The position numbers and the translations under genes were made by a program. The notes under the pieces are model-generated. The model was not told the DNA's origin, ran no database searches, and worked only from the letters and a program-made list of their open reading frames with translations. A stretch of DNA of 64,000 bases from Arenicola marina (taxonomy: Eukaryota; Annelida; Polychaeta; Arenicolidae), in NCBI GenBank assembly GCA_964019135.1, contig OZ025263.1, forward strand, positions 24,861,639 through 24,925,638, read 5' to 3'. Positions 1 to 58,433 of this stretch are shown in pieces. Each line of letters begins with the position of its first letter. Within the stretch, counting starts at the first letter, position 1.

Positions 1-3000
1 AATATGAAAGGTAGTCCACCATTGAATATGCTACAAGCTATTTATCTCTATGGTACGGAGATATGTCACATATCATGGTCTAATGATACATTAAGGTTTA
101 TTGCTACATTATTATGGCTGGATTGTTAGATGAATTTATTTTAAATCAGTACGGAGGTCTGAGTTCAAATTCTTTAACTAATATTCTTGACAACTGTCCC
201 GATCGTGAGGAAACCGAGGTTGATGACCCTGAGCCGTGTATTCTAAAGCACTCGCCCTACTTTGAAGTAGACTCTGTAGAAAGTACCATGAGCAACAAAA
301 GTCATTTCAACATCCTGAGTATCAATATTTGCTCATTATCAGCTAAGATAGATGAATTAAGAATCCTCATCGATGAATTAAGAGAACGAAAAGTTATATT
401 ACATGCTATCTGTATACAAGAGAGTTGGCTGTCAGATGACGATGATCTTAGCCATTTACATCTTGAAGGGTATCACACAATCTCTCAACCCAAAATGTGT
501 AGTGCACATGGTGGATTAGTCATATATTTGGATAGTGCATTTGGATATGAACTGTTATCTGTACCTGGTGAAAAAACGAAATGGGAAGGTCAATTTATTG
601 AGGTGAAAACTGCTTCTGTGAGTAAGAATATTGTAATTGGAAATATCTACAGGCCCCCGCTAGAATTAGTGGAGAGCTATAAGACTTTCTCTGAACAAAT
701 GTCTAACACGCTTACATATTTTAATCGTACAAATAAGCTTGTTGTTATCTCTGGTGATTATAACATAGATCTTCTTAGAATTATTGAAAAACAATCTGTG
801 GCGGAATTTTTTGACGCCGTGTTAGCATGTGGGTTCTTTCCCAAAATTACATTGCCAACCAGACTGTCCAGATTACGTGCTACTTTGATTGATAATTTTT
901 ATTGCAATATCTGTGACAACTTAACAGAGTCACCGGCGGGTGTCATTATAAACTCCATGTCGGATCACCTGCCCTACTTCTTGTGTGTAAAATATGAACA
1001 CTCCCGTCCAGTTGGCAGGAAAATGGTCAAATTTGTTTGCCAAGACCCGGTTTCAGTTTCAAACTTCAAAAAAGAAGTAGAATCTATGGAAATCGAAAAC
1101 ATGCTAAATAATGACATTTCATCTGACCCAAATGTGAATTACGAAATACTAGAAAAGTCCGTCCTTCGTGCTAGAGAAAAACATATTCCTTCTAAGCTAG
1201 TTAAGTTCAAAAAATTCAAGCACAAATCAAATCCTTGGATAACTAAGGGTATTATGAAATCGATCAAGTTCCGAGATAAACAGTATAAAATACTAAGAGG
1301 AACGCCGCCAGATTCTCCATTATATGAGACTCATAGAACTAATCTAAAAACGTATAATCGTATCCTAAAACGAAATATTTATTTAGCAAAGCGTGATTAT
1401 TATAATGGTCGATTCCTTAGCTGCAAAAATGATATAAAGAGGACCTGGGGTACCCTGAAAGATTTACTCAAACTTTCAAACGATAAAAGGACCTTCCCTA
1501 AGTCTATACAATTTGATGGTTATGAAATCACTGATCGCTTAACAATTTGTGAGAAATTTAATTCATTTTTTGCTACGGCTGGTCAAGAGCTTGCAAAGGC
1601 AAATTTAAAAACAACTTCTCGTCGTTTTGAAGACTATCTTAAAGGCAAGCCTAATACCGAGTTTAACTTTACATTCGTTTCCACAAACACTGTGATCGAT
1701 GTTATAAATAATCTTAAGCCTAAGCACAGTAAAGGCGTCGATTCTCTTTCTGTTAACCTTCTAAAATTGATTAAAGATGAAATCTCTGTAGCCCTGACCT
1801 TTATTGTGAATCAATCACTGGCAACAGGAATCTTTCCGTCTAAACTGAAAATTGCCAAAGTTGTACCAGTTTATAAGAAGGGTAATGAAAATGATATTAG
1901 CAACTATCGTCCAATATCAATTTTGCCGGCCATGTCTAAGGTTTTTGAGAAAATAATTGCTAACCAACTCTACAGTTACTTTGACATAAATAAACTGTTT
2001 AGAAATAGTCAATACGGATTTCGCTCCAAACATTCGACTGACCTAGCTGTATTAGAGGTTGTAGATCGTGTCCTTATATCAATGGATCAAAACCAACTTC
2101 CCGTTAGTATTTTCCTTGATCTTTCTAAGGCTTTCGACACTATTGATCATGACATATTAATCAAAAAAATTAATCATTACGGAATCCGCGGAATGGCCCT
2201 GAGTTTGCTGGAGAATTATTTAACAAATAGATCGCAATGTGTTTGTCTGGATGACGTCACATCAAACATGACGAACATAACGACAGGTGTACCACAAGGT
2301 TCCATTCTAGGACCATTATTATTCATAATTTATATTAATGACATAGAACAGTGTAGTAAATTCTTTAAATATATAATATATGCGGATGATACCACGCTTT
2401 TCTTTTCACTTAACTTATCTACAACTGGAACATCCTCTATTATTATAAATGCAGAACTTAGAAAAATAAGTGCGTGGTTGTCTGCAAATCGGCTAGTTCT
2501 TAACATAGAGAAATCCAAATATATGCTTTTTTATACGCCACAAAGAAAAGTAAACCCAATAGAGTTGTCAATTAACAATACGCATTTGGAGTGTGTTGAT
2601 GAATTCAATCTGTTGGGTGTCACCATAAATAAACATCTTAAGTGGCATAATCATGTAAGAAAAATTGCAAACAAAATAAACAAATCCATTGGCATTATGC
2701 ATAGACTGAAACATATCCTTCCCCAACACGTTTTACTAAGCCTGTATAATTCATTGATTCTGCCTCATATAACAACAGGGGTCCTGCTATGGGGTTATGA
2801 TAACACCAGTTTGTTTAGATTACAGAAAAAGGCAATGAGGGCTATTACGCTAAGTAAATGGAATGCGCACTCCGAGCCTCTGTTTAAACAACTGCGATGC
2901 CTAAAGATAACAGACATACATAAACTACAGCTGCTGAAATTTTATTACAGACAAAAGAAGGGAATTCTTCCAGAATACTTTTTGAATCTACCGCTTACTT

Positions 3001-3553
3001 CGCTTTGTGATATACACCATCATAATACCAGACGTAAATCGTATGTCTTTACCAGTAGAGCCAGACATTCCTTTGCCCTTAAGTGTATCAGACATAGTCT
3101 TGTTGATCTAATTAATAATGAGCCCACCAGTGTTCTCTCTGAAATAGACACGCCCAGCATACATGGATTCGCAAACTACAACAAAATCATTATTCTAGAT
3201 AATTACTCCTACGACTGTACCATTGAAAACTGCTACATATGCCAGTATTAACATTTATTTATGGAGGGGTAAGTGTTTGTTTTGGAGAGGGGGGTCCAAG
3301 GATGGGGGGGTGGTTCGTTAAAATTTAGTCCAAACGTTTACCCTCTGTATGATACGTTTTGTTTGTTTTTATGTTCTATTTGCGTGTTCCGCCATCTAAG
3401 CATTTTTTTTGTGTGAACTGATATGATAAGGTGGCCAGGCGTTAGCGATTAATTAATCTTAGCCTGTGTCTCCTAACCTGCAATACCTCTGTAATGCGTA
3501 TGTATTCATGTAACAACAGATTTATTTGTGTTGGTTAAATAAATGAAATGAAC
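1..3553 (+). mobile_element. Non-LTR retrotransposon (CR1/Jockey-like LINE), 5' end outside window
   Basis: The element comprises 113 bp upstream of a long endonuclease/reverse-transcriptase ORF (114-3251), the ORF, and a 300-bp 3' UTR. It ends in AATAAATGAAATGAA at about 3553, directly against the Evx minisatellite. The junction falls inside a 57-bp repeat unit, so the element inserted into the array. No target-site duplication can be checked because the left end is not in the window. Any first ORF would also lie to the left. The uninterrupted ORF suggests a young insertion. Confidence 0.85.
114..3251 (+). CDS. LINE ORF2: apurinic-type endonuclease + reverse transcriptase, 1045 aa, intact
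   Basis: This is the self-propagation protein of the LINE: it nicks target DNA and reverse-transcribes the element RNA at the nick. The N-terminal part has endonuclease/exonuclease/phosphatase landmarks in order: ILSINICSLS (about residue 67), IQESWL (about 101), HGGLVIYL (about 132), IGNIYRPP, ISGDYNIDLL and SDHLPY. The reverse transcriptase follows with YRPISILPAMSKVFE, QYGFRSKHST, motif A FLDLSKAFDTIDH, motif B TTGVPQGSILGPLLF and the catalytic YADD at about 756-759. A C-terminal tail typical of the CR1/Jockey group follows. There are no stops or frameshifts over 3138 nt. The clade assignment rests on motif style only; a related clade is possible. Confidence 0.92.
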   Translation: MAGLLDEFILNQYGGLSSNSLTNILDNCPDREETEVDDPEPCILKHSPYFEVDSVESTMSNKSHFNILSINICSLSAKIDELRILIDELRERKVILHAICIQESWLSDDDDLSHLHLEGYHTISQPKMCSAHGGLVIYLDSAFGYELLSVPGEKTKWEGQFIEVKTASVSKNIVIGNIYRPPLELVESYKTFSEQMSNTLTYFNRTNKLVVISGDYNIDLLRIIEKQSVAEFFDAVLACGFFPKITLPTRLSRLRATLIDNFYCNICDNLTESPAGVIINSMSDHLPYFLCVKYEHSRPVGRKMVKFVCQDPVSVSNFKKEVESMEIENMLNNDISSDPNVNYEILEKSVLRAREKHIPSKLVKFKKFKHKSNPWITKGIMKSIKFRDKQYKILRGTPPDSPLYETHRTNLKTYNRILKRNIYLAKRDYYNGRFLSCKNDIKRTWGTLKDLLKLSNDKRTFPKSIQFDGYEITDRLTICEKFNSFFATAGQELAKANLKTTSRRFEDYLKGKPNTEFNFTFVSTNTVIDVINNLKPKHSKGVDSLSVNLLKLIKDEISVALTFIVNQSLATGIFPSKLKIAKVVPVYKKGNENDISNYRPISILPAMSKVFEKIIANQLYSYFDINKLFRNSQYGFRSKHSTDLAVLEVVDRVLISMDQNQLPVSIFLDLSKAFDTIDHDILIKKINHYGIRGMALSLLENYLTNRSQCVCLDDVTSNMTNITTGVPQGSILGPLLFIIYINDIEQCSKFFKYIIYADDTTLFFSLNLSTTGTSSIIINAELRKISAWLSANRLVLNIEKSKYMLFYTPQRKVNPIELSINNTHLECVDEFNLLGVTINKHLKWHNHVRKIANKINKSIGIMHRLKHILPQHVLLSLYNSLILPHITTGVLLWGYDNTSLFRLQKKAMRAITLSKWNAHSEPLFKQLRCLKITDIHKLQLLKFYYRQKKGILPEYFLNLPLTSLCDIHHHNTRRKSYVFTSRARHSFALKCIRHSLVDLINNEPTSVLSEIDTPSIHGFANYNKIIILDNYSYDCTIENCYICQY

Positions 3554-6500
3554 TCTGACTCGGGCAGGTTGAGGCATGAAGTATGGGGTATGTGACTCCC
3601 TACCTTGATGGTGGACTCGGGCAGGTTGAGGCATGAAGTATGGGGTATGTGACTCCATACCTTGATGGTGGGCGCGGGCAGGTTGAGGTATGAAGTATGG
3701 GGTATGTGACTCTCTACCTTGATGGTGCACTCGGGCAGGTTGAGGTATGAAGTATGGGGTATGTGATACCCTACCTTGATGGTGGACTCGAGCAGGTTGA
3801 GGTATGAAGTATGGGGTATGTGACTCCCTACCTTGATGGTGGACACGGACAAGTTGAGGCACGAAGTATGGGGTAAGTGACTTCCAACCTTGATGGTGGA
3901 CTCGGGCAGGTTGAGGTGTGAAGCATGGGGTATGTGACTGCCTACCGTGATGATGGACTCGGACAGGGTGAGGTATAAAGTATGGGGTATGTGACTCCCT
4001 ACCTGGATGGTGGACTCGGACAGGTTGAGGTATGAAGTATGGGGTACATGACTCCCTACCTTGATGGTGGACTCGGACAGGTTGAGGTATGAAGTATGGG
4101 GTATGTGACTCCCTACCTTGATGGTGGACTCGGGCAGGGTGAGGTATAAAGTATGGGGTATGTGACTCCCCACCTTGATGGTTGACTCGGACAGGTTGAG
4201 GTATGAAGTACGGGGTATGTGACTCCCCACCTTGATGGTGGGCGCGGCCAGGTTGAGGTATGAAGTATGGGGTATGTGACTCCCTACCTTGATGGTGGAC
4301 TCGGGCAGGTTGAGGCATGAAGTATGGGGTATGTGACTCCATACCTTGATGGTGGGCGCGGGCAGGTTGAGGTATGAAGTATGGGGTATGTGACTCTCTA
4401 CCTTGATGGTGCACTCGGGCAGGTTGAGGTATGAAGTATGGGGTATGTGACTCCCCACCTTGATGGTGGGCGCGGGCAGGTTGAGGTATGAAGTATGGGG
4501 TATGTGACTCCCTACCTTGATGGTGGACTCGAGCTGGTTGAGGTATGAAGTATGGGGTATGTGACTGCCTACCTTGATGGTGGACTCGAGCAGGTTGATG
4601 TATGAAGTATCGGGTATGTGACTGCCTGCCTTGATGGTGGACTCGGGCAGGTTGAGGTATGAACTATGGGTTATGTGACTCCCCACCTTGATGGTGGGCG
4701 CGGGCAGGTTGAGGTATGAAGTATGGGGTATGTGACTCCCTACTTTGATGGTGGACTCGAGCAGGTTGAGGTATGAAGTATGGGGTACATGACTCCCTAC
4801 CTTGATGGTGGACTCGGGGAGGTTGAGGTATGAAGTATGGGGTATGTGACTGCCTACCTTGATGATGGACTCGAGCAGGTTGAGGTATGAAGTATGGGGT
4901 ATGTGACTCTCTACCTTGATGGTGGATTCGAGCAGGTTGAGGTGTGAAGCATGGGGTATGTGACTCCCTACCTTGGTGCTGGGCGCGGGCAGGTCGAGGT
5001 ATGAAGTATGGGGTATGTGACTGCCTACCTTGATGGTAGACTCGGGCAGGTTGAGGTATGAAGTATGGGGTATGTGACTCCCTACCTTGATGGTGGACTC
5101 GGGCAGGTTGAGGCATGAAGTATGGGGGATGTGACTCCCTACCTTGATGGTGGACTCGGGCAGGTTGAGGTATGAAGTATGGGGTATGAGACTGCCTACC
5201 TTGAGGGTGGACTCGGGCAGGTTGAGGTATGAAGTATGGGGTATGTGACTCCCTTCCTTGATGGTGGACTCGGGCAGGTTGAGGTATGAAGTATGGGGTA
5301 TGTGACTGCCTACCTTGATGGTGGACTCGGGAAGGTTGAGGTATGAAGTATGGGGTATGTGACTCCCTACCTTGATGGTGGACTCGGACAGGTTGGGGTA
5401 TGAAGTGTGGGGTATGTAACTGCCTACCTTGATGGTGGACTCGGGCAGGTTGAGGTATGAAGTATGGGGTATGTGACTCCCTACCTTGATGGTGGACTCG
5501 AGCAGGTTGAGGTATGAAGTATGGGGTATGTGACTGCCTACCTTGATGGTGGACTCGGGCAGGTTGAGGAGTGAAGTATGAGATATGTGACTCCCTACCT
5601 TGATGGTGGACTCGGACAGATTGAGGTATGAAGTATGGGGTATGTGATACCCTACCTTGATTGTGGACTCGAGCAGATTGAGGTATGAAGTATGGGGTAT
5701 GTGACTGCCTACTTTGAGGGTGGACTCCAGCAGGTTGAGGTATGAAGTATGGGGTATTGACTCCCTACCTTGATGGTGGACGCGGGCAGGTTGAGTTATG
5801 AAGTATGGGGTATGTGACTCCCTACCTTGATGGTGGACTCGGGCAGGTTGAGGCATGAAGTATGGGGTATGTCACTCCCTTCCCTGATGGTGGACTCGGG
5901 CAGGTTGAGGTATGAAGTATGGGGTATGTGACTCCCTACCTTGATGGTGGACTCGGGCAGGTTGAGGCATGAAGTATGGGGGATGTGACTCCCTACCTTG
6001 ATGGTGGTCTCGGGCAGGTTGAGGTATGAAGTATGGGGTATGAGAGTGCCTACCTTGATGGTGGACTCGGGCAGGTTGAGGTGTGAAGTATGGGATATGT
6101 CACTCTCTACCTTGATGGTGGACTCGGGCAGGTTGAGGTATGAAGTATGGGGTATGTGACTCCCTACCTTGATGGTGGACTCGGGCAGGTTGAGGCATGA
6201 AGTATGGGGTATGTGACTCCCTACCTTGATGGTGGACTCGGACAGGTTGAAGTATGAAGTATGGGGTATGTGATACCCTACCTTGATGGTGGACTCGAGC
6301 AGATTGAGGTATGAAGTATGGGGTATGTGACTGACTATCTTGATGGTGGACTCGGGCAGGTTGAGGTATAAAGTATGGGGTATGTGACTCCCTACCTTGA
6401 TGGTGGACGCGGGCAGGTTGAGGTATGAAGTATGGGGTATGTGACTGCCTACCTTGATGGTGGACTCGGGCAGGTTGAAGTGTGAAGTATGGGGTATGTG

Positions 6501-8735
6501 ACTCCCTACCTTGATGGTGGACTCGGGCAGGTTGAGGTATGAAGTATGGGGTATGAGAGTGCCTACCTTGATGGTGGACTCGGGCAGGTTGAGGTGTGAA
6601 GTATGGGATATGTCACTCTCTACCTTGATGGTGGACTCGGGCAGGTTGAGGTATGAAGTATGGGGTATGTGACTCCCTACCTTGATGGTGGACTCGGGCA
6701 GGTTGAGGCATGAAGTATGGGGTATGTGACTCCCTACCTTGATGGTGGACTCGGACAGGTTGAGGTATGAAGTATGGGGTATGTGATACCCTACCTTGAT
6801 GGTGGACTCGAGCAGATTGAGGTATGAAGTATGGGGTATGTGACTGACTATCTTGATGGTGGACTCGGGCAGGTTGAGGTATGAAGTATGGGGTATGTAA
6901 CTCCCTACCTTGATGGTGGACGCGGGCAGGTTGAGGTATGAAGTATGGGGTATGTGACTGCCTACCTTGATGGTGGACTCGGGCAGGTTGAAGTGTGAAG
7001 TATGGGGTATGTGACTCCCTACCTTGATGGTGGACTCGGGCAGGTTGAGGTATGAAGTATGGGGTATGTCACTGCCTACCTTGATGGTGGACTGGGACAG
7101 GTTGAGGTATGAAGTATGGGGTAAGTGACTCCCTACCGTGATGGTGGACTCGGGCAGGTTGAGGTATGACGTATGGGGCATGTCACTGCCTACCTTGATG
7201 GTGAACTGGGGCCGGTTGAGGTATGAAGTATGGGGTATGTGACTCCATACCTTGAAGGTGGACTCGGGCAGGTTGAGGTATGAAGTATGGGGTATGTGAC
7301 TCCCTACCTTGGTGGTGGACGCGGGCAAGTTGAGGCATGAAGTATGGGGTAAGTGACTGCCTACCTTGATGGTGGACTCGGGCAGGTTGAGGTATGCATT
7401 ATGAGGTATGTGACTCCCTACCTTGATGGTGGACTCGGGCAGGTTGAGGTATGAAGTATGGGGTATGAGACTGCCTACCTTGATGGTGGACTCGGGCAGG
7501 TTGAAGTATGAAGTATGGGGTATGTGACTCCCTACCTTGATGGTGGACTCGGGGAGGTTGAGGCATGAAGTATGGGGTATGTGACTCCCTACCTTGATGG
7601 TGGACTCGGACAGGTTGAGGTATGAAGTATGGGGTATGTGATACCCTACCTTGATGGTGGACTCGAGCAGATTGAGGTATGAAGTATGGGGTATGTGACT
7701 GACTATCTTGATGGTGGACTCGGGCAGGTTGAGGTATGAAGTATGGGGTATGTGACTCCCTACCTTGATGGTGGACGCGGGCAGGTTGAGGTATGAAGTA
7801 TGGGGTATGTGACTGCCTACCTTGATGGTGGACTCGGGCAGGTTGAAGTGTGAAGTATGGGGTATGTGACTCCCTACCTTGATGGTGGACTCGGGCAGGT
7901 TGAGGTATGAAGTATGGGGTATGTCACTGCCTACCTTGATGGTGGACTGGGACAGGTTGAGGTATGAAGTATGGGGTAAGTGACTCCCTACCGTGATGGT
8001 GGACTCGGGCAGGTTGAGGTATGACGTATGGGGCATGTCACTGCCTACCTTGATGGTGGACTGGGGCCGGTTGAGGTATGAAGTATGGGGTATGTGACTC
8101 CATACCTTGGTGGTGGACGCGGGCAAGTTGAGGCATGAAGTATGGGGTAAGTGACTGCCTACCTTGATGGTGGACTCGGGCAGGTTGAAGTGTGAAGTAT
8201 GGGGTATGTGACTCCCTACCTTGATGGTGGACTCGGGCAGGTTGAGGTATGAAGTATGGGGTATGTCACTGCCTACCTTGATGGTGGACTGGGACAGGTT
8301 GAGGTATGAAGTATGGGGTAAGTGACTCCCTACCGTGATGGTGGACTCGGGCAGGTTGAGGTATGACGTATGGGGCATGTCACTGCCTACCTTGATGGTG
8401 GACTGGGGCCGGTTGAGGTATGAAGTATGGGGTATGTGACTCCCTACCTTGGTGGTGGACGCGGGCAAGTTGAGGCATGAAGTATGGGGTAAGTGACTGC
8501 CTACCTTGATGGTGGACTCGGGCAGGTTGAGGTATGCATTATGAGGTATGTGACTCCCTACCTTGATGGTGGACTCGGGCAGGTTGAGGTATGAAGTATG
8601 GGGTATGAGACTGCCTACCTTGATGGTGGACTCGGGCAGGTTGAGGTATGAAGTATGGGGTATGTGACTCCCTACCTTGATGGTGGACTCGGGCAGGTTG
8701 AGGTGTGAAGTATGGGGTATGTGACTCCATACCTT
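3554..8735 (-). repeat. 57-bp minisatellite copying the Evx exon 2 / intron 2 junction, about 91 units
   Basis: Read on the minus strand, each unit has CCTCAACCTGCCCGAGTCC and ACCATCAAG, then the donor GTAGGGAGTCACATACC and the rest of a 29-nt intron-derived half. The genuine junction at 8733/8732 has the same sequence, with GTATGG as donor. Each unit is therefore half exon and half intron and carries a potential 5' splice site. The period is 57 bp, so the frame of exon 2 stays open across many units as a 19-residue repeat. Block duplications are visible: diagnostic variants recur at exactly 513 bp (9 units), 855 bp (15 units) and 342 bp (6 units). The array is cut on the left by the LINE. 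Confidence 0.95.
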
Positions 8736-8893
8736 GATGGTGGACTCCGGCAGGTTGAGGGCGGCCGCCAGTTCACACCGCTTGGGGCGGGAGACGTAGT
8801 TCTCCTTGGTGAACTCGCGCTCCAGCTTGCCCAGCTGTTCCCGGGTGAAAGCCGTTCTGTAGCGCCGAACCTGGGAGTCATCCATCGCCATGT
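8733..8893 (-). CDS. Evx: Evx/even-skipped homeobox gene, exon 2 (homeodomain residues 1-46)
   Basis: This 161-nt exon encodes most of an Even-skipped class homeodomain, a DNA-binding transcription factor of the nucleus. Visible are [12 protein letters not shown], then [15 protein letters not shown] and [17 protein letters not shown], which match Eve/Evx family signatures. The exon starts after a pyrimidine-rich acceptor (TTCTCCAG at 8901-8894). It enters in phase 1, which fits exon 1 (the codon A|AC gives Asn), and ends with AAG at 8733 followed by GTATGG. The break falls between homeodomain residues 46 and 47, the conserved intron position of Evx genes. Helix 3 (WFQNRR) is not in the window; exon 3 must lie left of position 1, past the minisatellite and LINE. 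The sequence does not decide between EvxA and EvxB type paralogs. Confidence 0.93.
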
Positions 8894-12305: not shown

Positions 12306-12951
12306 TTTTGTGCATCATGTCGTGCTTGGCGTCTTCTCCCTTGGGTGACTTGGGTGAGGCTGAGCGGTAGCCGCTCTCCTTGCGGTCCTGGTGGGGGTGT
12401 GACGTCTCGGAGTGGAGGAGCCCCGACTCCCCGCTCTCACCCACAATGTCACCAGCCTCCTGATTGGCTCTGTGACAGTCATCCATCGCGTCCGAATGAG
12501 GCTCTGGTGCGCATGCGCCGTGGATAGCGGAAGGACTCGTGAACTCCTCCTCGTGACGCTCCCCCGACGGCGTCGGGATCCGCGGTGACGTCATCGAAAA
12601 TCCTGGTGACGTCATTCTGCCGTGTTCCGGACCCATTCGGCTGTTAGAGTCAAACGTCAGCGTCGATGTCGGGGTCCCTGACGCTGACGGCGATGACGCG
12701 GAGGGTGATGATGGGGTTGGGGCGGCTGACTTCGGCAGATCCAGTGTCATTGCAGGGGATCCAGGTGTCGCCTGCTCGCGGGGAAAGGGCGGGAAACAGC
12801 GTTCCCGCTCCCGTTCCCGTTCCCGTTCCCGCTCCCACGGCTGGGAAAAGCGACTGACGTCCCTGCCGACCAGGGAGGCGATGGAAAGCGGACCGCTGGG
12901 CGAGAAAGTCGTTGTAACGGCTGGCAATGTCACCCCTGGTCGGTAGTCCAT
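12306..12951 (-). CDS. Evx: Evx/even-skipped homeobox gene, exon 1 (N-terminal 215 aa)
   Basis: This is the coding part of the first exon, from ATG at 12951-12949 (protein start MDYRPGVTLP) to the donor AAAA|GTAAGT at 12306/12305. It is 646 nt long, so it ends in phase 1 and joins exon 2 in frame. The protein segment is rich in Ser, Pro and Thr and of low complexity, as is usual N-terminal to Evx homeodomains. It includes a Glu-Arg dipeptide run at about residues 40-51 encoded by a CCCGTT/CCCGCT hexamer array. The last residues, SPKSPKGEDAKHDMMHK, are basic. An upstream in-frame Met exists, but it lies in an AT/CT microsatellite and is unlikely to be used. Identification rests on linkage and phase with the homeobox exon; the segment itself is poorly conserved in the family. 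Confidence 0.8.
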
Positions 12952-22839: not shown

Positions 22840-22971
22840 TCTGGTTGGCTTCGGTTGGCTCCGGATGGCTGTGGATGTCTTCAGATTTCTCCGGATGGCA
22901 CTGGATGATTCCAGATTACTCTGGTTGGCTCCAGACGGTTTCGGATGGTTACGGATGGATCTTGATAGCCC
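22840..22971 (-). repeat. ~10-bp repeat downstream of the VWFD pseudogene stop
   Basis: On the minus strand a degenerate decamer like AGCCATCCGG recurs after the pseudogene stop. The intact gene has three or four such decamers at the same place (37155-37190), so the repeat existed before the two copies separated and expanded in this one. Confidence 0.7.
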
Positions 22972-23717
22972 TCAGTTGGTCTGGTGGACACCCTCGACAC
23001 AGGAGTCGGAGACGGCCATTCGTCCGTCGTTGTCCCGGCTCTGGAGGTTGGCCGGGATGCTCTGATCCATACAGCCGAACCAGTCGTTGGCCCCCTGGCC
23101 GTTGGCGTCGCCACAGAGGCCCTCCACCAGGCCGTTATAGTCCTCGCTGACGCTGACGACCACCGTGTCGTGGCGTCTGCCACCGACAGTCGTAGTCGAC
23201 CCGCCACGATGTACAAAACCGCGTCGCCCTGGATCACCTTGTCGGCCATCAGGATTACCTCGTTCCTGGCGTCGGTGTACACGTACGGCAACTGGGTGAG
23301 TGAATCCGGCTGCAATACAGAGAGGGGCGTCATAATGGTAAAATAGAGCATATGTGGGACTGTAGGATTCCGCCCACACCATGGGTCAACCAGGTACAAA
23401 AATGTATAACGGAGTGCCGCTGGGAGCCCCAACATCTTACCCATCCAAGTACCAAAAAGTGTATAAAAGTACAGCCCATCCACGTACTAGCTGAGAAAGT
23501 GGCACCGCTTGGGCAAAATCTACTGCGACGAAAATCCTTAGGATCGACCCCATCGGGACCCATTTTGGCTTACCAACTGCCCGCCAAAGATACCAGCAGT
23601 GCAAAATTGAGGACTCATCGGTGTACCAAAATGCGCGAGAAAGACACCCTTTCCAGCGCACGTCTTCAGCAGTCCACTACCTTCAGATAACCGCCCCCCC
23701 CCCCCCACCACCACCGG

Positions 23718-24141
23718 TGGGATTTCCCTTATCGTTAGCTAGCCCCGCCCATCTCACAGTGTCGTGGCCACGCCCGTTATCCTCAGTTTGCCCCGCACTT
23801 CTCATCATGTCGAGGCCACGCCCCTTGTCATCATCTTGCCCCGCACTTCTCATCATGTCGTGGCCACGCCCCTTGTCATCAGCTAGCCCAGCCCATCTCA
23901 TCATGTGGTGGCAACGCCCCTTGTCATCAACTAGCCCCACCCATCTTACAGTGTCGTGGCCACTCCCTTTATCATCAGCTAGCCCCGCACTTCTCATCGT
24001 GTCGAGGCCACGCCCCTTGTCCTCAGCTTGCCCCGCCCTTCTCACAGTGTCGTGGCCACTCCCTTCATCATCAGCTTGCCCCGCCCTTCTCATCGTGTCG
24101 AGGCCACTCATGTATCATCCGCTTGCCCCACCCATCTTACC
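23718..24141 (-). repeat. 48-bp minisatellite at the exon 4/intron 4 junction of the VWFD pseudogene
   Basis: About nine degenerate units read, on the minus strand, as GTAAGATGGGTGGGGC then a TGATGACAAGGGGCGTGGCC-like half. They start directly at the intron 4 donor. The exon-like half resembles the last 20 nt of exon 4. The array is homologous to the one in the intact gene (36190-36537) but longer and differently ordered. Confidence 0.88.
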
Positions 24142-30839: not shown

Positions 30840-33800
30840 ATGAAGACGTTTTTCGTGATATGCGCACTGATCATCGGTGAGTGGCCTGCCAGGTTAAAGT
30901 AATGTGTTCTGTAATTTTTGTATTGCCAATATTCTCTCCATGTCAAACAAGTATATTCTGTCTGGAATTTAAATTCCGAAGGCCTGTGAGCTATCCGGAG
31001 AGTAGCAAGTTTGACTCACCGGAGCAGAAGTTGGTGGCCGACTTTATATCCCTGCACGCCTGTTCGCTGTTCGGTATTCTGTGTGATGTCGACCGCGACT
31101 CACTAAGACTTCCGCGCGCGATAATAGTCAGCGCAGTTTTATGTTGAAATTGTTGTTTTGCAGACTCAACGAGATATAAAACACATAAATCATAATTTTG
31201 AGATACTTTTAGTCTTGATTCTAATATGTATAAAATCTAAGATGGCGCATGTAAGTAGGCTGCTTTAAAGGCAATCTTATGTATTGTGTTTATTGTTTGT
31301 ACACATGACCCTGTGATCAAGTTGACACAATCATGTTGTGTGTAACATATTATCTAAAACACAAACTTGTAAGCTAGCAGATCGCCTGCAAGATGTTTTG
31401 AGCAATTTGTGTGATTTGTGCGTTTTCCATTTCGTGACCTAACATTCAGCATCAGGTCGAAGCTGGTGTGCTTGTCGGTTCAATCAGAGACGTTTATGGT
31501 GTAGAATAGCTTAAATGTCTGTAGAATATCATTATAGAGATATGTTTTAGTTATCGATATATGTGGATTCATTAACTATGCCTGGATGGAAATGCATAGT
31601 AATTACTAATCTTGTACCACGTAAATCTAGTACTACCCCATCGTTACCCCAGTATTACGGCCACATCGTTACCCCAGTATTACGGCCACATCGTTACCCC
31701 AGTATTACGGACCTATCGTTACCCCAGTATTACGACCCCGTCGTTACCCCAGTATTACGGTCCCTTCGTTACCCCAGTATTACGGTCCCTTCGTTACCCC
31801 ACTATTACGGCCACATCGTTACCCCAGTATTACGGTCACATCGTTACCCCAGTATTACGGTCACATCGTTACCTCGGTATTACGGCCACATCGTTACCCC
31901 AGTATTACGGACCTATCGTTACCCCAGTATTACGGTCACATCGTTACCCCAGTATTACGGACCTATCGTTACCCCAGTATTACGACCCCGTCGTTACCCC
32001 AGTATTACGGTCCCTTCGTTACCCCAGTATTACGGTCACATCGTTACCCCAGTATTACGGTCACATCGTTACCCCAGTATTACGGTCACATCGTTACCCC
32101 AGTATTACGGTCCCTTCGTTACCCCAGTATTACGGTCACATCGTTACCCCAGTATTACGGTCCCTTCGTTACCCCAGTATTACGGTCACATCGTTACCCC
32201 AGTATTACGGTCACATCGTTACCCCAGTATTACGGACCTATCGTTACCCCAGTATTACGGACCTATCGTTACCCCAGTATTACGGTCACACCGTTACCCC
32301 AGTATTACCGTCACATCGTTACCCCAGTATTACGGACCTATCATTACCCCTGTATTACGACCCCGTCGTTACTCCAGTATTACGGTCCCTTCGTTACCCC
32401 AGTATTACGGTCACATCGTTACCCCAGTATTACGGTCACATCGTTACCCCAGTATTACGGTCATATCGTTACCCCGGTATTACGGTCACATCGTTACCCC
32501 AGTATTACGGACCTATCATTACCCCTGTATTACGACCCCGTCGTTACTCCAGTATTACGGTCCCTTCGTTACCCCAGTATTACGGTCACATCGTTACCCC
32601 AGTATTACGGTCACATCGTTACCCCAGTATTACGGTCACATCGTTACCCCAGTATTACGGACCTATCATTACCCCTGTATTACGACCCCGTCGTTACTCC
32701 AGTATTACGGTCCCTTCGTTACCCCAGTATTACGGTCACATCGTTACCCCAGTATTACGGTCACATCGTTACCCCAGTATTACGGACCTATCATTACCCC
32801 TGTATTACGACCCCGTCGTTACTTCAGTATTACGGTCCCTTCGTTACCCCAGTATTACGGTCACATCGTTACCCCAGTATTACGGTCACATCGTTACCCC
32901 AGTATTACGGACCTATCGTTACCCCAGTATTACGACCCCGTCGTTACCCCAGTATTACGGTCCCTTCGTTACCCCAGTATTACGGTCACATCGTTACCCC
33001 AGTATTACGGTCACATCGTTATCCCAGTATTACGGCCACATCGTTATCCCAGTATTACGTCCCCGTCGTTACCCCACTATTACGGTCACATCCTTACCCC
33101 AGTATTACGGTCACATCGTTACCCCAGTATTACGGTCACATCGTTACCCCGGTATTACGACCACATCGTTACCCCGGTATTACGGCCACATCGTTACCCC
33201 AGTATTACGACCACTTTGTTACCTTACTACTACGGCCACATCGTTACATCTACTTTCCAATGTTAAGGCGTTTGTGCTGTGGGGGCTGGAGGCTGGGGGA
33301 AGGGGGGGGGGGCTTAGTGCTAATTAGCCGGCATAGTTGGGGGTGGGGGGAGGCGGCGGCGAGTAGATTACGGGGGGTAGTTAGTTTTTTTTTTGCTACA
33401 CGCTCTTTGGGAATGATAGACTGACCGACGAACAGAAAACGTAAATATCGCGGCAATATATAACGGTGGCAAATAAAAAAGCCAACACCATAAATAATGG
33501 TCGCCGGCCAAGTACATAAAGGAGACTCCATCGGCCTGTTGATTTCACTTCTCCTGTCGCTAAGCCCTGAATCACGGTACGTGAATAACTCAACAGGTGC
33601 AGACAAGAGTTATCACCAAGAGCCGAACCCGGCATGCCGGGGCCACTCTGGGACGTCATGTCTCTTTGTGGTGGCTTCAAAAGTTAACACTCCTATCCTA
33701 CCCCGCACCCGCTACCCCGCACCTATCTCACCACCACCGTCCTAAGGCACTAAGCGTCTAATGACCCAAGCCCTATAGGCCTCCGCCTCCCCTCACCCTC

Positions 33801-36800
33801 CAGGCACCCCTATACCTCACCCCACCCTCGTCCTCCGGTCCTAGCACCCTCCAAGGCCCGCTCACCGGAAATACTGCCCATTTCAGGGGCGGATCCAGGG
33901 GGGAGAGCCGGGTCGGCTCGGCCCCGGTCCCCCCCCTTTAGGGCCGAAATTTATACCATTTAACATGAAAACCGAATGAAAATCGAAACCGGCCCTCCCC
34001 CCTTTCCAGCATATCTGGATCCGACTCTGAAACCGGACCCCCCCTATCCAGATTGTCTGGATCCGCCCCGGCATTTAGTTTATACCGTTTGCCAGCTGCA
34101 TCAAGGCAGGTTGGGAAAGAGTGACGGCCCACACCGGCTTGCTTAGCCCAAAACGGATCAAACACATTCGAATAACCCGTACGTCAGTCACTCGGTGGAG
34201 CCATTGCTAACCCAGAGTTTCTGTGTTTTATAGTTTGTTGCATTGTGACTGACCTTATTTAACGACTGCTTTTGTCCCTCAACAGGTGGCCATCTCAGCA
34301 ATGGCGAGGAGATCTGCACTGGTACCACCGTGTCAGGCCCAGCGGACGTGGACTGTCAGTGCAGCTGCGAGTGTGAGCCAGGTAGGATGGTGTGGTATCT
34401 ATGGCTGGATACATCCCATAGTATACACTCATTCACGTGTTCTGTACGTGATGCACATGTGCAGCGCTCATCGCTACTTTAGTGCGGTATTAATTCGCAA
34501 ATTTTGCACAAGGAATGCTGAAAAAATCAAATCCAAAATGTCATTAATGCGTCAATAAATCAAATCAGACAGTAAGAAACTGGATGAGAAGAGTATTTAG
34601 CAGCTCGACCGATAATTAGGGGTTGACAATCGGAATGACGTTTTGAGCATTTAAGTGTTCTAGAGATACATTTGCCCGGGAGATATAGCAATGGTGCCGT
34701 GGTCAGGATTGTTTAACATTAATTTGGTGCCGTGACCAGGATTGTTTTACATGACATGTAATATGCCGCCGTGATCATGATTATTTAACATAAATATGAT
34801 GCCATGATCGGGATTATTTCATATTGATATGGTCCCCTAATCAGGATTATTTTACATTAATACGTTGCCGTTTTCAGGATTATTTACATTAATATGGTGT
34901 CGCGATCAGGATTAGTTAACATTACTATGGTGCCGTGATCGGGATTGCTTAACATTAAAATAATATAGTCCCGTGACAAGGATTATATAACATTAATGTG
35001 ATGCCGTTATCAGGATTATATATCATTAATGTGGTGCCGCGATCAGCATAATTAACAATCATATGGTGCCGTGATCAGAATTATTTTACATTAATGTGTC
35101 GCCATCAGGATTATTTCACATTAATATGGTGCCGTGACCAGGATTATTTTACATTATTATGGTGTCGCGATCAGGATTATTTTATGACATTAATACGCTG
35201 TCGTGATCAGGATTGTGTCTGTTTGGGAAACTCCTCAGTGACTGTGACTGTCTTTTCTCAGAGGAGTGCCCGGTGGAGATGCGCAGTTGCGCAGCTGGGT
35301 TCTCCGTCACTCAAGTTATGGACTCCAGCTACGTCCAGTTTGACGCCTCGGACCTTCAAACCTTCGACGGCGAGAAGCTGCAGCTGTTCACAGACGACAA
35401 ATTCTTGCTGGCGAGGAGCGTGGCCCCCTTTGACCAGGAGCACCCGTGCAAGGTAAGGAACGGGTGGATGTTGGGTAATAAATGTCAATAGGCTGCCTAG
35501 TGTCGCGTTGGACAGAAGCGTCTAAGAGCTCCAGGTTTGTCCTAACGCCGGATCTGTGGCGGATTTCACGAACGCAGTTCAGCCGACTACGGGGCTTAGT
35601 CGGCTAAAGTTACCATGTAAATGATGTGCGATTTTAGCCGACTAAGCCCAGTAGCCGGTTGAACTATATACGTGAAATAGGCCACTGTAGGGAAGTCGAT
35701 TTGCTGGCCTCTTGAACAAGGTGCACCGCACTTTGTAGACTCATGGCATTTCGCATCATAATGAAATTATTTCGTCACACAATCATGGACATGTGCGATA
35801 TGTTTTAGTGAGCATTAGTCGTTTACCTATTCGGATGGAACACATTGAGCGTCCAGACACAGGTCTGGTGATATGACTCTCCTCATGTATGGCTGTCTTT
35901 GACGGATTCTCTAGTCTCGCTTTGTTTGCGTGTATCTGTCACCGTAGCGTATGTAGTCCCGTGCACCGACCCCACTCACACTCAGCACCGTCATAACGGC
36001 CTCTGTATCCACCCACAGTTCCAGATTCACGTGGTCACCAAGATCGACAAACGGACGGGCAGGACGTACCTCAAGTGGCTGGGCGTCGGCTTCGACGAAC
36101 ACGAGAAGAATTCCGACAAGTACGACAAGAACCTAAGGATCTCCATCCAACAGGACCAGGTGGAGATCAGGGGCCGCGGCCTCAAGACGGTAAGATGGTG
36201 GGGCAAGCGGATGATAAGCGGCGTTGCCACCACATGATGAGAAGGGCTGGGCTAGCTGAGGACAAGGGGAGTGGCCACGACACGATGAGAAGGGCGAGGC
36301 AAGCTGATGATAAAGGGAGTGGCCACGACACTGTAAGATGGGTGGGGCTAGCTGATGACAAGGGGCGTGGCCTCGACACTGTAAGATGGGTGGGGCTAGC
36401 TGATGACAAGGGGCGTGGCCACGACACAGTAAGATGGGTGGGGCTAGCTGATGACAAGGGGCGTGGCCACGACACTGTAAGATGGGTGGGGCTAGCTGAT
36501 GACAAGGGGCGTGGCCTCGACATGGTGAGAGGTTCGGGGCAACCTGCTGATAAGGGAATAGCATCCCTACATACAGTGTAATTTAATATTGTGGTGCCGT
36601 GATCAGGATTGTAGTTTTGCTACCAAAATGCCCAGTAACCCTGCGCCCCGCTCTGTGTTCGACACTCCCCGAAACTGTCAATTACCACGATGTGCCCCGG
36701 GCTGTGTTTAACACTGTTTAACAGTCCTACTTATGGTGTACTTTAATATTATGACGCCACTCTCTGCGCTGCAGCCGGACGCGGTGACCGAGTTCCCGTA

Positions 36801-37143
36801 CGAGTACACGGACGCCCAGAACAAGGTGATCCTGACGGCCGACAAGGCGATCCAGGGCGACGCGCTGGTGTACACCGTGGCGGGCGGCGCCGTCGACTAC
36901 GAGTGTCGGTGGCAGATCGTCTTCACGGAGCACCAGAACGGCCACGACACGGTGGTCGTCAGCGTCAGCGAGGACTATAACGGCCTGGTGGAGGGCCTCT
37001 GTGGCGACGCCAACGGCCAGGGGGTCAACGACTGGTTCGGCTGTATGGATCAGAGCATCCCGGCCAACCTCCAGAGCCAGGACAACGACGGACGGATGGC
37101 CGTCTCCGACTCCTGTGTCGAGGGTGTCCACCAGACCAACTGA
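30840..37143 (+). CDS. Secreted VWFD-domain protein, five exons, 287 aa
   Basis: Exons by consensus splice sites and matching phases: 30840-30876, 34286-34381, 35262-35452, 36019-36189 and 36775-37143 (TGA). Exon 1 encodes a signal peptide (MKTFFVICALIIG). Exon 2 adds a Cys-rich stretch (CQCSCECEP). Exons 3-5 form one von Willebrand factor type D domain: CPVEMRSCAAG, VQFDASDLQTFDG, FLLARSVAPF, FQIHVVTKID, LRISIQQDQVEI, VVVSVSEDYNGLVEGLCGDANG, then DWFGCMDQ. GLCGDANG corresponds to the conserved GLCGxxNG of VWD modules. The protein is probably extracellular; the partner is unknown. Introns hold a 25-bp satellite (1), a ~33-bp repeat (2), a foldback (3) and a junction minisatellite (4). Coding DNA is GC-rich compared with its introns. 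A broken inverted paralog lies at 22972-25406. Confidence 0.88.
31634..33245. repeat. 25-bp satellite (~64 units) with higher-order structure, in VWFD intron 1
   Basis: The consensus is TATTACGGTCACATCG followed by TTACCCCAG, with four main variants in the middle (GTCACA, GACCTA, ACCCCG, GTCCCT). The variants recur in order: the block GACCTA-ACCCCG-GTCCCT returns at intervals of 175, 150 and 125 bp (ends of ACCTA at 32340, 32515, 32665, 32790). The 25-bp period opens long spurious ORFs. Confidence 0.95.
33884..34071 (+). mobile_element. CAGGGGCGGATCC MITE, most complete copy, in VWFD intron 1
   Basis: The left end CAGGGGCGGATCCAGG and right end CTGGATCCGCCCCGG are inverted repeats. The core AAATTTATACCATTTAACAT and CCAGCATATCTGGATCCG are shared with the copies at 12080 and 25758. 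A second, partial right-end-like block (CCAGATTGTCTGGATCCG) lies beyond the first. Confidence 0.75.
34687..35215. repeat. Degenerate ~33-38-bp repeat in VWFD intron 2
   Basis: About 14 diverged units resemble ATGGTGCCGTGATCAGGATT plus TATTTTACATTAAT. A single stray unit occurs in intron 4 (36590-36612). The divergence indicates an older array than the others here. Confidence 0.85.
35552..35690. mobile_element. Foldback/palindromic MITE in VWFD intron 3
   Basis: The left arm GTGGCGGATTTCACG, GTTCAGCCGACTAC, GGGCTTAGTCGGCTAAA and the right arm TTTAGCCGACTAAGCCC, AGTAGCCGGTTGAAC, CGTGAAATAGGCCAC form a hairpin with arms of about 55 bp around a loop of about 23 nt (35609-35631). It is a probable non-autonomous DNA element; no coding capacity. 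Confidence 0.85.
36190..36537 (+). repeat. 48-bp minisatellite at the exon 4/intron 4 junction of the intact VWFD gene
   Basis: About seven units of GTAAGATGGGTGGGGCTAGC, TGATGACAAGGGGCGTGGCC and ACGACACT start at the intron 4 donor (GTAAGATGG, 36190). Later units repeat the donor-like GTAAGATGGG at 48-bp intervals. The half before each donor copies the exon 4 end (GGGGCCGCGGCCTCAAGACG). Because 48 is a multiple of 3, the frame of exon 4 stays open through most of the array. Confidence 0.92.
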
Positions 37144-38655
37144 GAGCGACCAGGAGCTATCCGGAGCCATCCGGAGCCATCCGGATCGAGAGTCCGGCAT
37201 GCCTCCGAGGGCGAGGCTGAAGCGGCCGGGAGCAGCCGGAAGGCTGGGGATTGCACGGTGGGGGTGGCACGTTAGAAATAGTTCCTGTACCAGGATTAAT
37301 AGAACATATTAACTGTTTTACTGACACTGATCATGATATTGAGAATTCGCCATGACTGCCCTTTTCGATTTTTTTGTCGTTGATTCCCCGACCTATGCCT
37401 GCAAAAAAACCCAAAAAACTTTGGACAATTACTGGTTTGCTGCAATGGTTTTGGATAAATTTTAAATACTAGTGCCCAAGTTGTATATTGATGCACAATG
37501 TTAATTAATAATGGGAAACGAAACACATTATGGTATAAACATCAGAAAATGTTTTAGTAATTAATACGAGCAAATCAATGAATAAATGTTTGCAAAGGGA
37601 TCAAGTTTACCTTTCCGTGAATCAATGATGCGAAACTGTTTATGCAATGAACCGTACCCCATGGTGAAATATGGCAGTAGTACACGGCACAGTCCGCTAG
37701 ATGGCACTGCTCGGCCCTATTAATCCCCGTTTTCTCTGCCAGATGATGCATTTACGTGATCGTCGAACTTTTCTCCAAAGCATAACTGTTCGCAATAGTC
37801 TATCAAGCATGCCGCGAAGTGATATTGACTAATATTTAGGGACTTAGGCAAATTCTAAAAGTGTTTTTACTGAGCGATCCTGTTTTGTTTTGACGACGGG
37901 ATATCTGTCTTCAATTAGGCTACGTTCAGAGCTAGAAGACGATTTGTGGGACACTAAATTGGGATATTACGTTTTACCATTGGGCGCCAGGCCACTCTTA
38001 ACATGGACTGTTTAATGTGACGACTGGTTGTTACTTTAGTATACATACCACCCGTCACTTTCATCTCTAGTATTCCGACACAGTTTTTAACATTTACGAG
38101 TGGCATTTAGGTCGAATGATCTCATCTCTTCTCTTAACCACTGATGCGGGTAACCATTTGATATCAACAATTTTGTTGACGACACCGTGGCGGGGGAAAA
38201 AACGGCATTCTGTCTCAGAAAGTGGGGTCCGGACCCCCTGGACTCCCCCATGGAACCGACCATGGAGGGGGGAAGGCGGGGCGTAGGGTCGGTGTAGTTT
38301 GCCCTTGGCATCAACCGCTCCCTGTTGAGACTAAGCAAGCCGTGTATTGTTCACATATATTCCGTGTAAACACATGTATCAAGTAGAATAATAAAAGTCA
38401 AGAGATATAATGTTGAAATGTATTGATTGCTTACATGTTTGTTGATTGCTGGCTTCGTTACCCATGACAACAACAACAACAACATATAGCAGCTTCGGGC
38501 TCCCAGCGTTTCTGGCAGAGCCACGTGTCTCTGAAAGTCAGGTTGCCATGGATACCGCTGCGGGACTGTTCCTTTTATTCAGACTGTAGACCCCGTTTCG
38601 CCGGACAGCTTCTAGTGTCAGGGTTATTGTCAAGCTGGAGCGGAATAAACCGACC
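37144..38655. other. 3' flank of the VWFD gene, no gene recognised
   Basis: It starts with the 3' UTR, with a possible polyadenylation signal AATAAA at about 37581. A (CAA)n run is at 38465-38482. A poly-C/G remnant at 38220-38260 resembles MITE interiors. No exon was found. Confidence 0.4.
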
Positions 38656-55292: not shown

Positions 55293-55739
55293 GACAAAAT
55301 TGATCTGTCTGTTTCGTCTTGATGTGCGCACAAAGCGGCAACCATCACCAATGTACTATTTCATAATTTCTTACTTCTTTTTTTAGAGGAGCTCGAACAA
55401 TGAGACCGTCTGTGTCAGAAACAAATAAAATATGAAGCTTTATGTATAATGCTCACAAGGACATCTACCCCGGGAGTTGGGGAGGGAGGGAGAGGGGGGA
55501 CGGATGCGGGGGCGGGTCTGCGACCTTCCTGAGATGCCACGACCTCTATCTAGGGCTGTCATCACCTTGGGTTTAGAGGCAGGAGGTAAAATACGCGTTA
55601 AATTCCCAGAATCTCCCGGAAAAATGATTAAGTACGAAATTTTAAGGGGCCACTATGTAAATGGTTAGGCTCCTATTGAGCTGCGGACAGGTTAAAATGG
55701 CATCCTTATTCATCACGCTTCTAGATATGCCAGCCGCGA

Positions 55740-55920
55740 TTCAACTCCTGTCAGGTGCAAATCAACACGTGTCAGGCGCGATGCAACACGTGTCAGGTGC
55801 GATTCAACACTTGTCTGGCGCGATTCAACAGGTATCAGGCGCAATGCAACAGTGTCAGGTGCGATTCAACACCTGTCTGGCGCGATTCAACACCTGTCTG
55901 GCGCAAGTCAACACGTATGA
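55740..55920. repeat. 21-bp minisatellite, ~8 units, segmental copy 2
   Basis: The unit is a variant of CAACACGTGTCAGGCGCGAT plus G or T. The period is a multiple of 3, giving spurious open frames. Confidence 0.95.
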
Positions 55921-56250
55921 TGCTAACTACCCTCCCGCCCTTCCACAAGCTCTAAACTACTGATAAAGCCGGCTTCAAATGCCAGCAAAATCTCCATAAG
56001 CGGCTCAAAAACCGTCCACCAGGGTATACAGAACACGTCTAACAGGGAATGCTATTGAAATCCCAGATGTGGTTTTGGATGTAGATAGTCAATGGGGCGG
56101 AAGTCCGGAGCCCTGACAGAATGTGTCCCCCACAGCTTGTCGGTAACATGGCAACAGCTTGTTTCCGGGTGTCCTGTTCACAATACACTCCACCATCCCA
56201 GGTATATTGAAGGCCGGCTCGAATCACTGGGTCTATTGCCTGGAGATCCC

Positions 56251-56943
56251 CACCCGCCAGCCACCAGCCACCAGCCACCCCCCGCCAGCCACCAGCCACC
56301 AGCCACCAGCTACCAGCAACCAGCCACCAGCCACCAGCCACCAGCCACCAGATACCAGAAACCAGCAACTAGCTACCAGCCACCAGCCACCAGCCACCAG
56401 CCACCAGCCACCAGCCATCAGCCACCAGCCACCAGCCACCAGCCACCAGCCACCAGCCACCAGCCACCAGCCATCAGCCACCAGACACCGGCCACCAGCC
56501 ACCGGCCACCGGCCACCAGCCACCAGCCACCAGCCACCAGCCACCAGCCACCAGCTACCAGCCACCAGCCACCAGCCACCAGCCACCAGCCACCAGCCAC
56601 CAGCCACCAGCCACCAGCCACCAGCCACCAGCCACCAGCCACCAGCCACCAGCCACCAGCAACTAGCCACCAGCCACCAGCCACCAGCCACCAACCACCA
56701 GCCACCAGCCACCAGCCACCAGCCACCAGCAACTAGCCACCAGCCGCCAGCCGCCAGACGCCAGCCACCAGCCACCAGCCACCAGCCACCAGCCCCCAGC
56801 CACCAGCCACCAGCCACCAGCCACCAGCCACCAGCCACCAGCCACCAGCCACTAGCCACCAGCCACCAGCCACCAGCCACCAGCCACTAGCAACTAGCCA
56901 CCAGCCACCAGCTACCAGCCACCAGCCACCAGCCACCAGCCAC
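56251..56943. repeat. Heptamer array (CCACCAG)n, segmental copy 2
   Basis: About 690 bp. A marker block CAACTAGCCACCAGCCGCCA followed by GCCGCCAGACG occurs once (56730). Confidence 0.96.
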
Positions 56944-58433
56944 CCGAACATGAAAGACAAAACCTGCAGACAACCTGATGACCACGCCATCTGGCGAAGA
57001 CAATAATCTCGTCGGGAGGTGTGAGATAGCCGCTAAATTCTTGACATGCGAGGCAGCGACCATCAAGATTATCGATACCAAGAACTGTCAGTCAGTTCAC
57101 TGGTCTTATTGCTACCCATTATCAATAGCAAACATATGGGACCCCGCTGCGGATATGAACAATAGTTAAGTTTCGGAAGGCAAGGCAACGTGAACCGGCT
57201 TGAAAGCAATGGATACTGGAGCCCGGAAGGTTTTTTAGGTCCCTGGTGTGTGAGGTGCTTAACCTGCAAACTTCCAGAGGAGCGCTCCCCCTCCACAGAC
57301 AGGCCAGCCGGGGCAAAGATTGCGACCTGATGTTCAAACAAAGGTTTCCGTCGTCTCTGACTGTATTCCGTCGCCGTTGCCCATGTCTATGTTGTGGGCC
57401 ACCGAGGGACGTGGTTTTATTGCCGCCGAGCTTCTTCTTCCTCCAGGTTTGAAGCTCCTCCCTCAGTCCCTGGTCGGGAATTATACTTAAACCCACCGCT
57501 GGTCGCTGGTCGGAGATTTATATTTAAACTCACCGGGACCCTCCCACCTCCCACCTCCCATCTCCCACTATTGGCAAGCCGCGTGTTAATTGCAATTTCC
57601 GCTTATTCAATTTGTAAGCAGTTTTTTTTTCGATCCTGGGACATTTCGCATTTCGCACTTTGTACGTACATAAAGACACAAGCTCCAGTGCCACGCATTG
57701 AAGTTGGCATCGTAACTGTGGGCCTATACTGGGATGCCCGCTTGGGTTGTTCGCCGCTCGCCTGTGGTGAGAGAGTAGATGTTGCCCCCAGTGAAGCACC
57801 GATCGCGGGGCACCAAACAATGTTATCTGAGATAAGGAAACGTGGAGATCAAATCTGTCTTGACTTGTGTGTGTGGGTGTGTCAGAGGAGAGGCGCGGCG
57901 TGCGTGTAGGACGGGGGGAGGGGGGGGGGGTAGCTCCTGGGGCCGTCCCTCGGGCCTGCTCCACGTGTTATCACGTCTGCTGTATCAGCACCGCGCTGTC
58001 CGCCCCGGCCACAACGAGCTGAAGGCTTCTGAAGCAGCACACTAGGGTGGTAGGGAATGGAGGCGGTGTTGGGGTCCGGGGGTGGCGGCGGAGGCGTCGG
58101 GTTGAAGACTGGGGCGGGTGGGGGTTCGGGGCGGCGGGGAGGTAGAAGGGTGGCTGATGGAGAGGATGGGCTTGGTGGGTGATCTGTTGCCTTAGCGTCC
58201 CGTTATTGCACCCATGTTGGTCGGCGTTTACAACCTGCAGCATAACATACAGGGAATGCCACAGCATTTTAACGAAGCAATTAATCTCTCTCAATCAAGT
58301 TATCACAATAGCGACTGACATGATACTAAATATACACCAACTCCAAGCACTCTGTGAAATACGCATCTGCCTCATCCCTGACTCACCAGATCAATCGCTC
58401 ATCTTGCTATAGCTCATGTTTTGCCCCCATATA

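What the first reader, a model, noticed from the sequence alone, without database searches (positions are those of the whole stretch)
3554..8735. The Evx homeobox is followed by about 91 tandem copies of its own exon/intron junction
Every 57-bp unit joins 28 nt of exon 2 (coding homeodomain helix 3 residues up to Lys46) to the first 29 nt of intron 2, including a usable-looking GT donor. The array begins exactly at the genuine junction, so the minisatellite arose from the splice site itself. To my recollection, exon/intron-junction ('mirage') minisatellites were described at the amphioxus Adh locus; I know of none reported in a Hox-linked homeobox. Many donors in one intron could compete for U1 snRNP, delay splicing or change isoforms.
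Basis: partly seen in the sequence, partly recalled or inferred. Interest (0 to 1): 0.88.

Follow-up and report, generated by a model that had tools for sequence, protein, structure and literature searches.

The report
Splice-junction minisatellites in an Evx gene
The junction where an exon of a developmental gene (Evx) meets its intron has been copied head to tail about 127 times into the intron; this is an unusually large example of a repeat type already known from lancelet genes, in a gene that otherwise looks intact.

Summary
The window holds 91 full 57-bp units joining 27-28 nt of Evx exon 2 to the start of intron 2. Beyond the window, past a ~4 kb retroelement lying in the array, are 36 more: 127 units, 121 with a GT donor. 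Exon 3, outside the window, is intact, and the joined gene reads as 486 aa. Intron 2 is 12,630 bp; its other end has two extra, partly decayed acceptor-junction copies. A second Evx gene 6.5 Mb away has a 476-bp intron 2 and no array, so the array derives from the exon. Such 'mirages' are published for lancelet Adh3, globin, troponin C and PGBD5 genes. In this genome 3 of 29 other split homeobox exons examined have one. Variants among units show no clear selection on frame or donors. Best reading: a neutral mirage minisatellite with splicing at the exon-proximal donor; this is inferred, and that donor is predicted to pair with U1 less well than 114 of 126 other units. New member of a known kind. 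Lancelet origin is inferred.

The parts
12306..12951 (-). Evx exon 1 coding part (646 nt, 215 codons plus 1 nt), donor AAAA|GTAAGT
   Evidence: start codon and donor chosen by eye, frame continues correctly into exon 2
8733..8893 (-). Evx exon 2 (161 nt), homeodomain residues 1-46; acceptor CTCCAG|ACATGG, donor AAG|GTATGG
   Evidence: Pfam PF00046 positions 1-45, E 4e-13
8703..8759 (-). Unit 0: the genuine exon 2/intron 2 junction, 27 nt exon + 30 nt intron
   Evidence: differs from the array consensus at 3 of 57 positions
3557..8760 (-). Window part of the 57-bp junction array: 91 full units plus a partial unit; 36 more full units lie outside the window at C18:24859126-24861199
5740..5852 (-). 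Units 51-52: the only Evx-frame stop found in the units (TAA, end of unit 51) and a 1-nt deletion in unit 52; from unit 52 on no donor gives a full-length Evx frame
1..3555 (+). Right part of a ~4 kb non-LTR-type retroelement lying in the array; open frame 114-3251 (1045 aa), 3' end about 3530-3555; it extends left of the window to about C18:24861200
   Evidence: RVT_1 E 4e-35; element class inferred

Best explanation
This is a 'mirage' minisatellite. A 57-bp stretch straddling the 5' splice site of Evx intron 2 was tandemly duplicated and then expanded, in blocks of up to about 10 units, to 127 copies that now lie inside the intron. A retroelement landed in the array. Separately, the acceptor end of the same intron gained two extra copies in 114-bp spacing. 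The exon-proximal donor and exon-proximal acceptor still make a normal three-exon 486-aa Evx mRNA; the copies are removed with the intron and drift neutrally. Shown: the structure, its origin from the exon, block duplication, a variant pattern close to the neutral expectation, open coding exons, other cases in the same genome. Inferred: which donor is used, the expansion mechanism (slippage or unequal exchange), and the absence of function.
For: Structure. Origin from the exon: the paralogue at C18:18379141 has the same exon end, CTCAACCTGCCCGAGTCCACCATCAAG, a 476-bp intron and no array; the array consensus matches the paralogue exon at a site where the gene's own exon differs (CCC against CCG). 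Intact gene: 646+161+654 nt give one 486-aa frame with a complete homeodomain. Neutrality: 89 distinct single-base variants split 23 synonymous, 64 non-synonymous, 2 stop, against 22.9, 63.4 and 2.7 expected with the same transition/transversion numbers; the donor nonamer has 1.56 distinct variants per site, other columns 1.56. Block duplication: 10 units (12-21 against 27-36) with 3 differences in 570 bp. Acceptor copies. Same genome: junction arrays at 3 of 29 other split homeobox donors: L050 36 bp x 18, L057 49 bp x 23.5, L067 80 bp x 16.2. Published: 'mirages' at either exon boundary in lancelet globins, normal splicing suggested by RT-PCR (PMC3087553, passages).
Against: The genuine donor AAG|GTATGG is predicted to pair with U1 less well (-6.2 kcal/mol) than the consensus unit (-9.7), than 114 of the other 126 units (scored whether or not they have GT) and than 19 of 20 control donors, so use of the first donor is not obvious. 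Use of GT donors in units 1-51 would keep a full-length frame, so such isoforms would not be expected to be removed by nonsense-mediated decay. By raw count GT columns differ less often than the average column (3.0 against 6.0 per site), which could hint at constraint or just reflect which units were copied. Exonic columns have somewhat fewer distinct variants per site than intronic ones (1.37 against 1.73; not tested). The 89 variants are not fully independent.
Confidence: 0.8

Rival explanations
1. Functional splicing array: the many donors sequester U1 or delay removal of intron 2, tuning Evx output.
For: 121 of 127 units keep GT; 114 of 126 copies pair better with U1 than the genuine donor; GT columns differ half as often per site as the average column by raw count. 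The units make up about 7.2 kb of a 12.6 kb intron.
Against: By distinct variants GT columns are as variable as the rest (1.5 against 1.56 per site). Paralogue intron 2 has no array. Three other homeobox genes have arrays with unrelated units, as expected of a by-product. Published cases appear to splice normally.
Confidence: 0.08
2. Coding expansion: donors inside the array are used, giving Evx isoforms with 19-aa insertions (or multiples) between homeodomain residues 46 and 47.
For: 57 bp is 19 codons; of the 127 units, 48 (all among units 0-51) have GT and give a full-length frame. The last nine residues before the junction are re-created with one extra unit: LNLPESTIK then VWFQNRR.
Against: No coding constraint among distinct variants. 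No unit from 52 on gives a full-length frame. Two of the three other arrays have 49- and 80-bp units that break frame. An insertion inside the homeodomain would be expected to spoil DNA binding.
Confidence: 0.06
3. Assembly artefact: copies misjoined or miscounted.
For: Copy number of long arrays is hard to assemble; gaps of 200 N lie elsewhere in the region.
Against: No N run between exon 3 and exon 1; the nearest of three in the 214 kb examined is at C18:24855245, downstream of exon 3. 82 distinct unit sequences, nested blocks and a retroelement flanked by array on both sides are hard to make by error. Exact copy number may still be wrong.
Confidence: 0.04
4. Dead gene copy: the array marks a decaying Evx duplicate while the other Evx does the work.
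For: The second Evx gene has intact exons 2 and 3 with a short intron; this one carries a huge intron, a retroelement and extra acceptors.
Against: All three exons are open and join in frame over 486 codons; homeodomain complete, 80.9 bits. Both genes end in RPFKAD.
Confidence: 0.05

Closest known systems
'Mirage' exon-intron-boundary minisatellites of lancelet Adh3 (Canestro et al. 2002, not held; known here through passages of PMC3087553 and PMC3902484)
   Same: Tandem units span an exon/intron boundary and duplicate splice sites.
   Different: Units there 10-72 bp as quoted in PMC3087553; here 57 bp, 127 units, in an Evx homeobox, interrupted by a retroelement. Length instability, reported there, is not testable here.
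Mirages of lancelet globins BflGb6 and BflGb9 (PMC3087553, passages)
   Same: Acceptor boundary (Gb6) or donor boundary (Gb9) duplicated; cluster edges escape homogenisation, as unit 0 here differs from the consensus.
   Different: Far fewer copies (6 and 3 in the two Gb6 haplotypes) and longer units (150-160 bp); here both ends of one intron are affected.
60- and 108-bp splice-site repeats in lancelet PGBD5 (PMC3902484, passages)
   Same: Imperfect repeats over 5' and 3' splice sites in one gene.
   Different: The 108-bp repeat has three copies; here 127 donor units and two extra acceptor copies.

Membership tests
Mirage (exon-intron-boundary) minisatellite | Tandem repeat whose unit contains both exon and intron sequence of an authentic junction | tested here: met
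   27-28 nt of exon 2 + 29-30 nt of intron 2 per unit, 127 full units; exon end also present in the paralogue
Mirage (exon-intron-boundary) minisatellite | Many, not all, units carry splice signals | tested here: met
   121 of 127 units have GT
Mirage (exon-intron-boundary) minisatellite | Authentic gene section intact at the array edge | tested here: met
   486-codon frame across exons 1-3
Mirage (exon-intron-boundary) minisatellite | Regular splicing of the mRNA | not testable with these tools
   no RNA data available
Mirage (exon-intron-boundary) minisatellite | Length instability between haplotypes or somatically | not testable with these tools
   one assembly only; internal block duplications are compatible
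Mirage (exon-intron-boundary) minisatellite | Occurs in a cephalochordate genome | tested here: inconclusive
Evx / even-skipped homeobox gene | Even-skipped type homeodomain split after residue 46 | tested here: met
   best solved-structure matches Even-skipped, 115 and 113 bits, next Engrailed 84; split shown

The most novel reading that the evidence does not exclude
5' splice sites are recurrent birthplaces of minisatellites in this genome: arrays start at the donor far more often than elsewhere in introns, those reaching a few bases into the exon become mirages, and in Evx the stronger decoy donors yield in-frame 19-aa homeodomain-insertion isoforms as a by-product.
Probability: 0.22. Interest if true: 0.72.

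Novelty: new member of a known kind. Interest (0 to 1): 0.43.

Why it matters
It places a very large mirage in a developmental regulator on a contig with Hox-like genes, and finds junction arrays at 3 of 29 other split homeobox exons examined in this genome. It is a natural test of donor choice: 121 GT donors in one array, with 114 of 126 copies predicted to pair with U1 better than the authentic site. It also bears on how introns grow: 476 bp in the paralogue against 12,630 bp here.

Tried and rejected
Exon 3 lost or gene dead: rejected, because exon 3 lies 1.4 kb beyond the distal end of the array and joins in frame. My first motif scan covered L010-L012 only and left out L009, the piece that holds exon 3; one search corrected this.

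Array selected for coding: not supported by the variant counts. The frame is open through the first 52 units, but this needs no selection: 2.7 stop variants expected, 2 seen.

Array starts cluster at donors: in the first 20 control loci 8 of 23 arrays start at -60..+40 of the donor, 0.74 expected, but I set that interval after seeing the list. In a second set of 9 loci, 0 of 2 arrays start there. Short original introns would also raise the chance figure. Kept only as the novel case.

Acceptor copies as a general habit: 0 of 12 control acceptors and 0 of 1 paralogue acceptor show copies.

RNA structure hiding the donors: exon 2 plus about three units folds with z -1.6, no clear signal.

Controls are 29 of the 35 homeodomain hits, other than the two Evx genes, that end at residues 38-46; itself scored only 150 of 768 candidates. 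Three of the 29 (L063-L065) are near-identical paralogues. The donors were picked by consensus, not by RNA. L052 shows a few decayed, widely spaced junction copies and is not counted among the 3.

Full report
What was checked. The window is C18:24861639-24925638 of an unnamed 867-Mb assembly in 762 contigs. Tandem Repeats Finder gives window 3557-8760, period 57, 91.3 copies. On the minus strand the first unit is the genuine end of an Evx exon 2 (window 8893-8733) and the start of its intron; 90 further full units follow in the window.

The array is larger than the finding. The window edge cuts a retroelement (open frame 114-3251 on the plus strand, RVT_1 E 4e-35) that lies inside the array. 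On its far side are 36 more units down to C18:24859126. The total is 127 full units, 82 of them distinct, 91% identical on average pairwise. Donor dinucleotides are 121 GT, 3 AT, 2 GA and 1 GC.

The gene is whole. Exon 3 starts at C18:24857740 with VWFQNRRMKDKRQR and ends in a stop at 24857087. Exon 1 (window 12951-12306), exon 2 and exon 3 join to 486 codons. The homeodomain is complete (80.9 bits) and the closest solved structures are Even-skipped (115 and 113 bits; next Engrailed, 84 bits). Intron 2 is 12,630 bp. No RNA was available, so the exon ends are read from sequence.

The other end of the intron. Upstream of exon 3 there are two further copies of the acceptor region with about 21 nt of exon 3 (GTGTGGTTCCAGAACAGACGG), one nearly perfect, one decayed, 114 bp apart. 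Thus both ends of one intron carry junction duplications. Published examples exist for single ends (globins) and for 5' and 3' splice sites in PGBD5.

Origin. A second Evx gene, with its homeobox exons between C18:18378664 and 18379275, has a 476-bp intron 2 and no array. Its exon 2 differs from this one at 6 of 138 homeobox positions. At one of these, the array consensus agrees with the paralogue (CCC) and not with its own exon (CCG). The exon is therefore taken to be older than the array, which copied it. Nested block duplications, such as units 12-21 against 27-36 with 3 differences in 570 bp, point to unequal exchange or slippage of blocks (mechanism inferred).

Selection. Taking each distinct variant once, 23 synonymous, 64 non-synonymous and 2 stop variants are seen, against 22.9, 63.4 and 2.7 expected. 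Donor-nonamer columns have as many distinct variants per site as others (1.56 each). Two results lean the other way: by raw count the two GT columns differ less often than the average column (3.0 against 6.0 per site), and exonic columns have fewer distinct variants than intronic ones (1.37 against 1.73 per site); neither was tested. The first 52 units happen to be open in the Evx frame, 48 of them with GT; a 1-nt deletion then breaks it.

Splice prediction. Duplex energy with the U1 5' end is -6.2 kcal/mol for the genuine donor and -9.7 for the consensus unit; of the 126 other units 114 score better than the genuine one, 4 tie and 8 are worse; of 20 control donors 19 score better. The calculation lets the duplex slide and ignores whether GT is present, so it is rough. 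Proximity or exon definition would have to favour the first donor; this is an inference from the published normal splicing of other mirages.

How common is it? Apart from the two Evx genes, 35 homeodomain hits in this genome end at residues 38-46; I could read 29. In the first 20 (about 3 kb each), three have junction arrays: L050 (36 bp x 18), L057 (49 bp x 23.5) and L067 (80 bp x 16.2); L052 has decayed copies. In the other 9 (about 0.5 kb each) there are none. So 3 of 29. At acceptors, 0 of 12 controls. Array starts cluster at donors in the first set (8 of 23 within -60..+40, expected 0.74, interval chosen afterwards) and not in the small second set (0 of 2).

Literature. [quoted passage not shown] PMC3902484 (passages) adds troponin C and PGBD5. 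The Adh paper is not held. Searches for 'minisatellite' with 'amphioxus' (5 papers), 'mirage minisatellite' (none), mirage and intron-gain terms (7 papers), Evx, amphioxus and repeat terms (92 papers, 20 listed), troponin C, amphioxus and mirage (35 papers, 10 listed) and Evx, minisatellite and related terms (226 papers, 12 listed) were seen as listings; no listed title or abstract start reports an Evx mirage. Absence elsewhere is not shown.

Verdict. It is a new and very large member of a known kind, probably neutral. The suggestion that it is a singular case is not supported, and the regulatory idea has no positive evidence here.

Noticed in passing
C18:24857740-24858100 (L009:6101-6460), outside the window: Two extra copies of the intron 2/exon 3 acceptor junction, 114 bp apart, so both ends of the same intron are duplicated.
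   Followed up: yes
C18:18378664-18379275 (L011): Second Evx gene whose exon 2 homeobox differs at only 6 of 138 nt, while the first 48 codons of exon 3 differ at 28 of 144 nt and tblastn found no exon 1 match in the 39.9 kb around it; gene conversion of exon 2 is possible.
   Followed up: partly
L050, L057, L067 (and decayed L052): Other split homeobox genes with tandem arrays of their own exon/intron junction (36, 49 and 80 bp units).
   Followed up: yes
L049, L051, L053, L059, L066: Minisatellites starting 19-38 bp after the 5' splice site without exon sequence.
   Followed up: partly
window 22881-24137 and 36187-37200: Two weak von Willebrand D-like matches (just below Pfam's cut-off) on opposite strands, each next to a 48-bp repeat array of similar sequence; looks like an inverted duplication.
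   Followed up: no
window 55731-57909 and 58999-62688: Two copies of a segment containing 21-bp and 7-bp (CCAGCCA) arrays and open frames that look alike by eye.
   Followed up: no
window 31639-33247: 25-bp array with 64 copies that keeps long open frames on the plus strand (567 and 571 aa); no evidence that it is coding.
   Followed up: no
C17:21614466-21826408: Cluster of 27 homeodomain hits in about 210 kb, several with equal scores; two that were read (L033, L035) look Vent-like by recollection.
   Followed up: no
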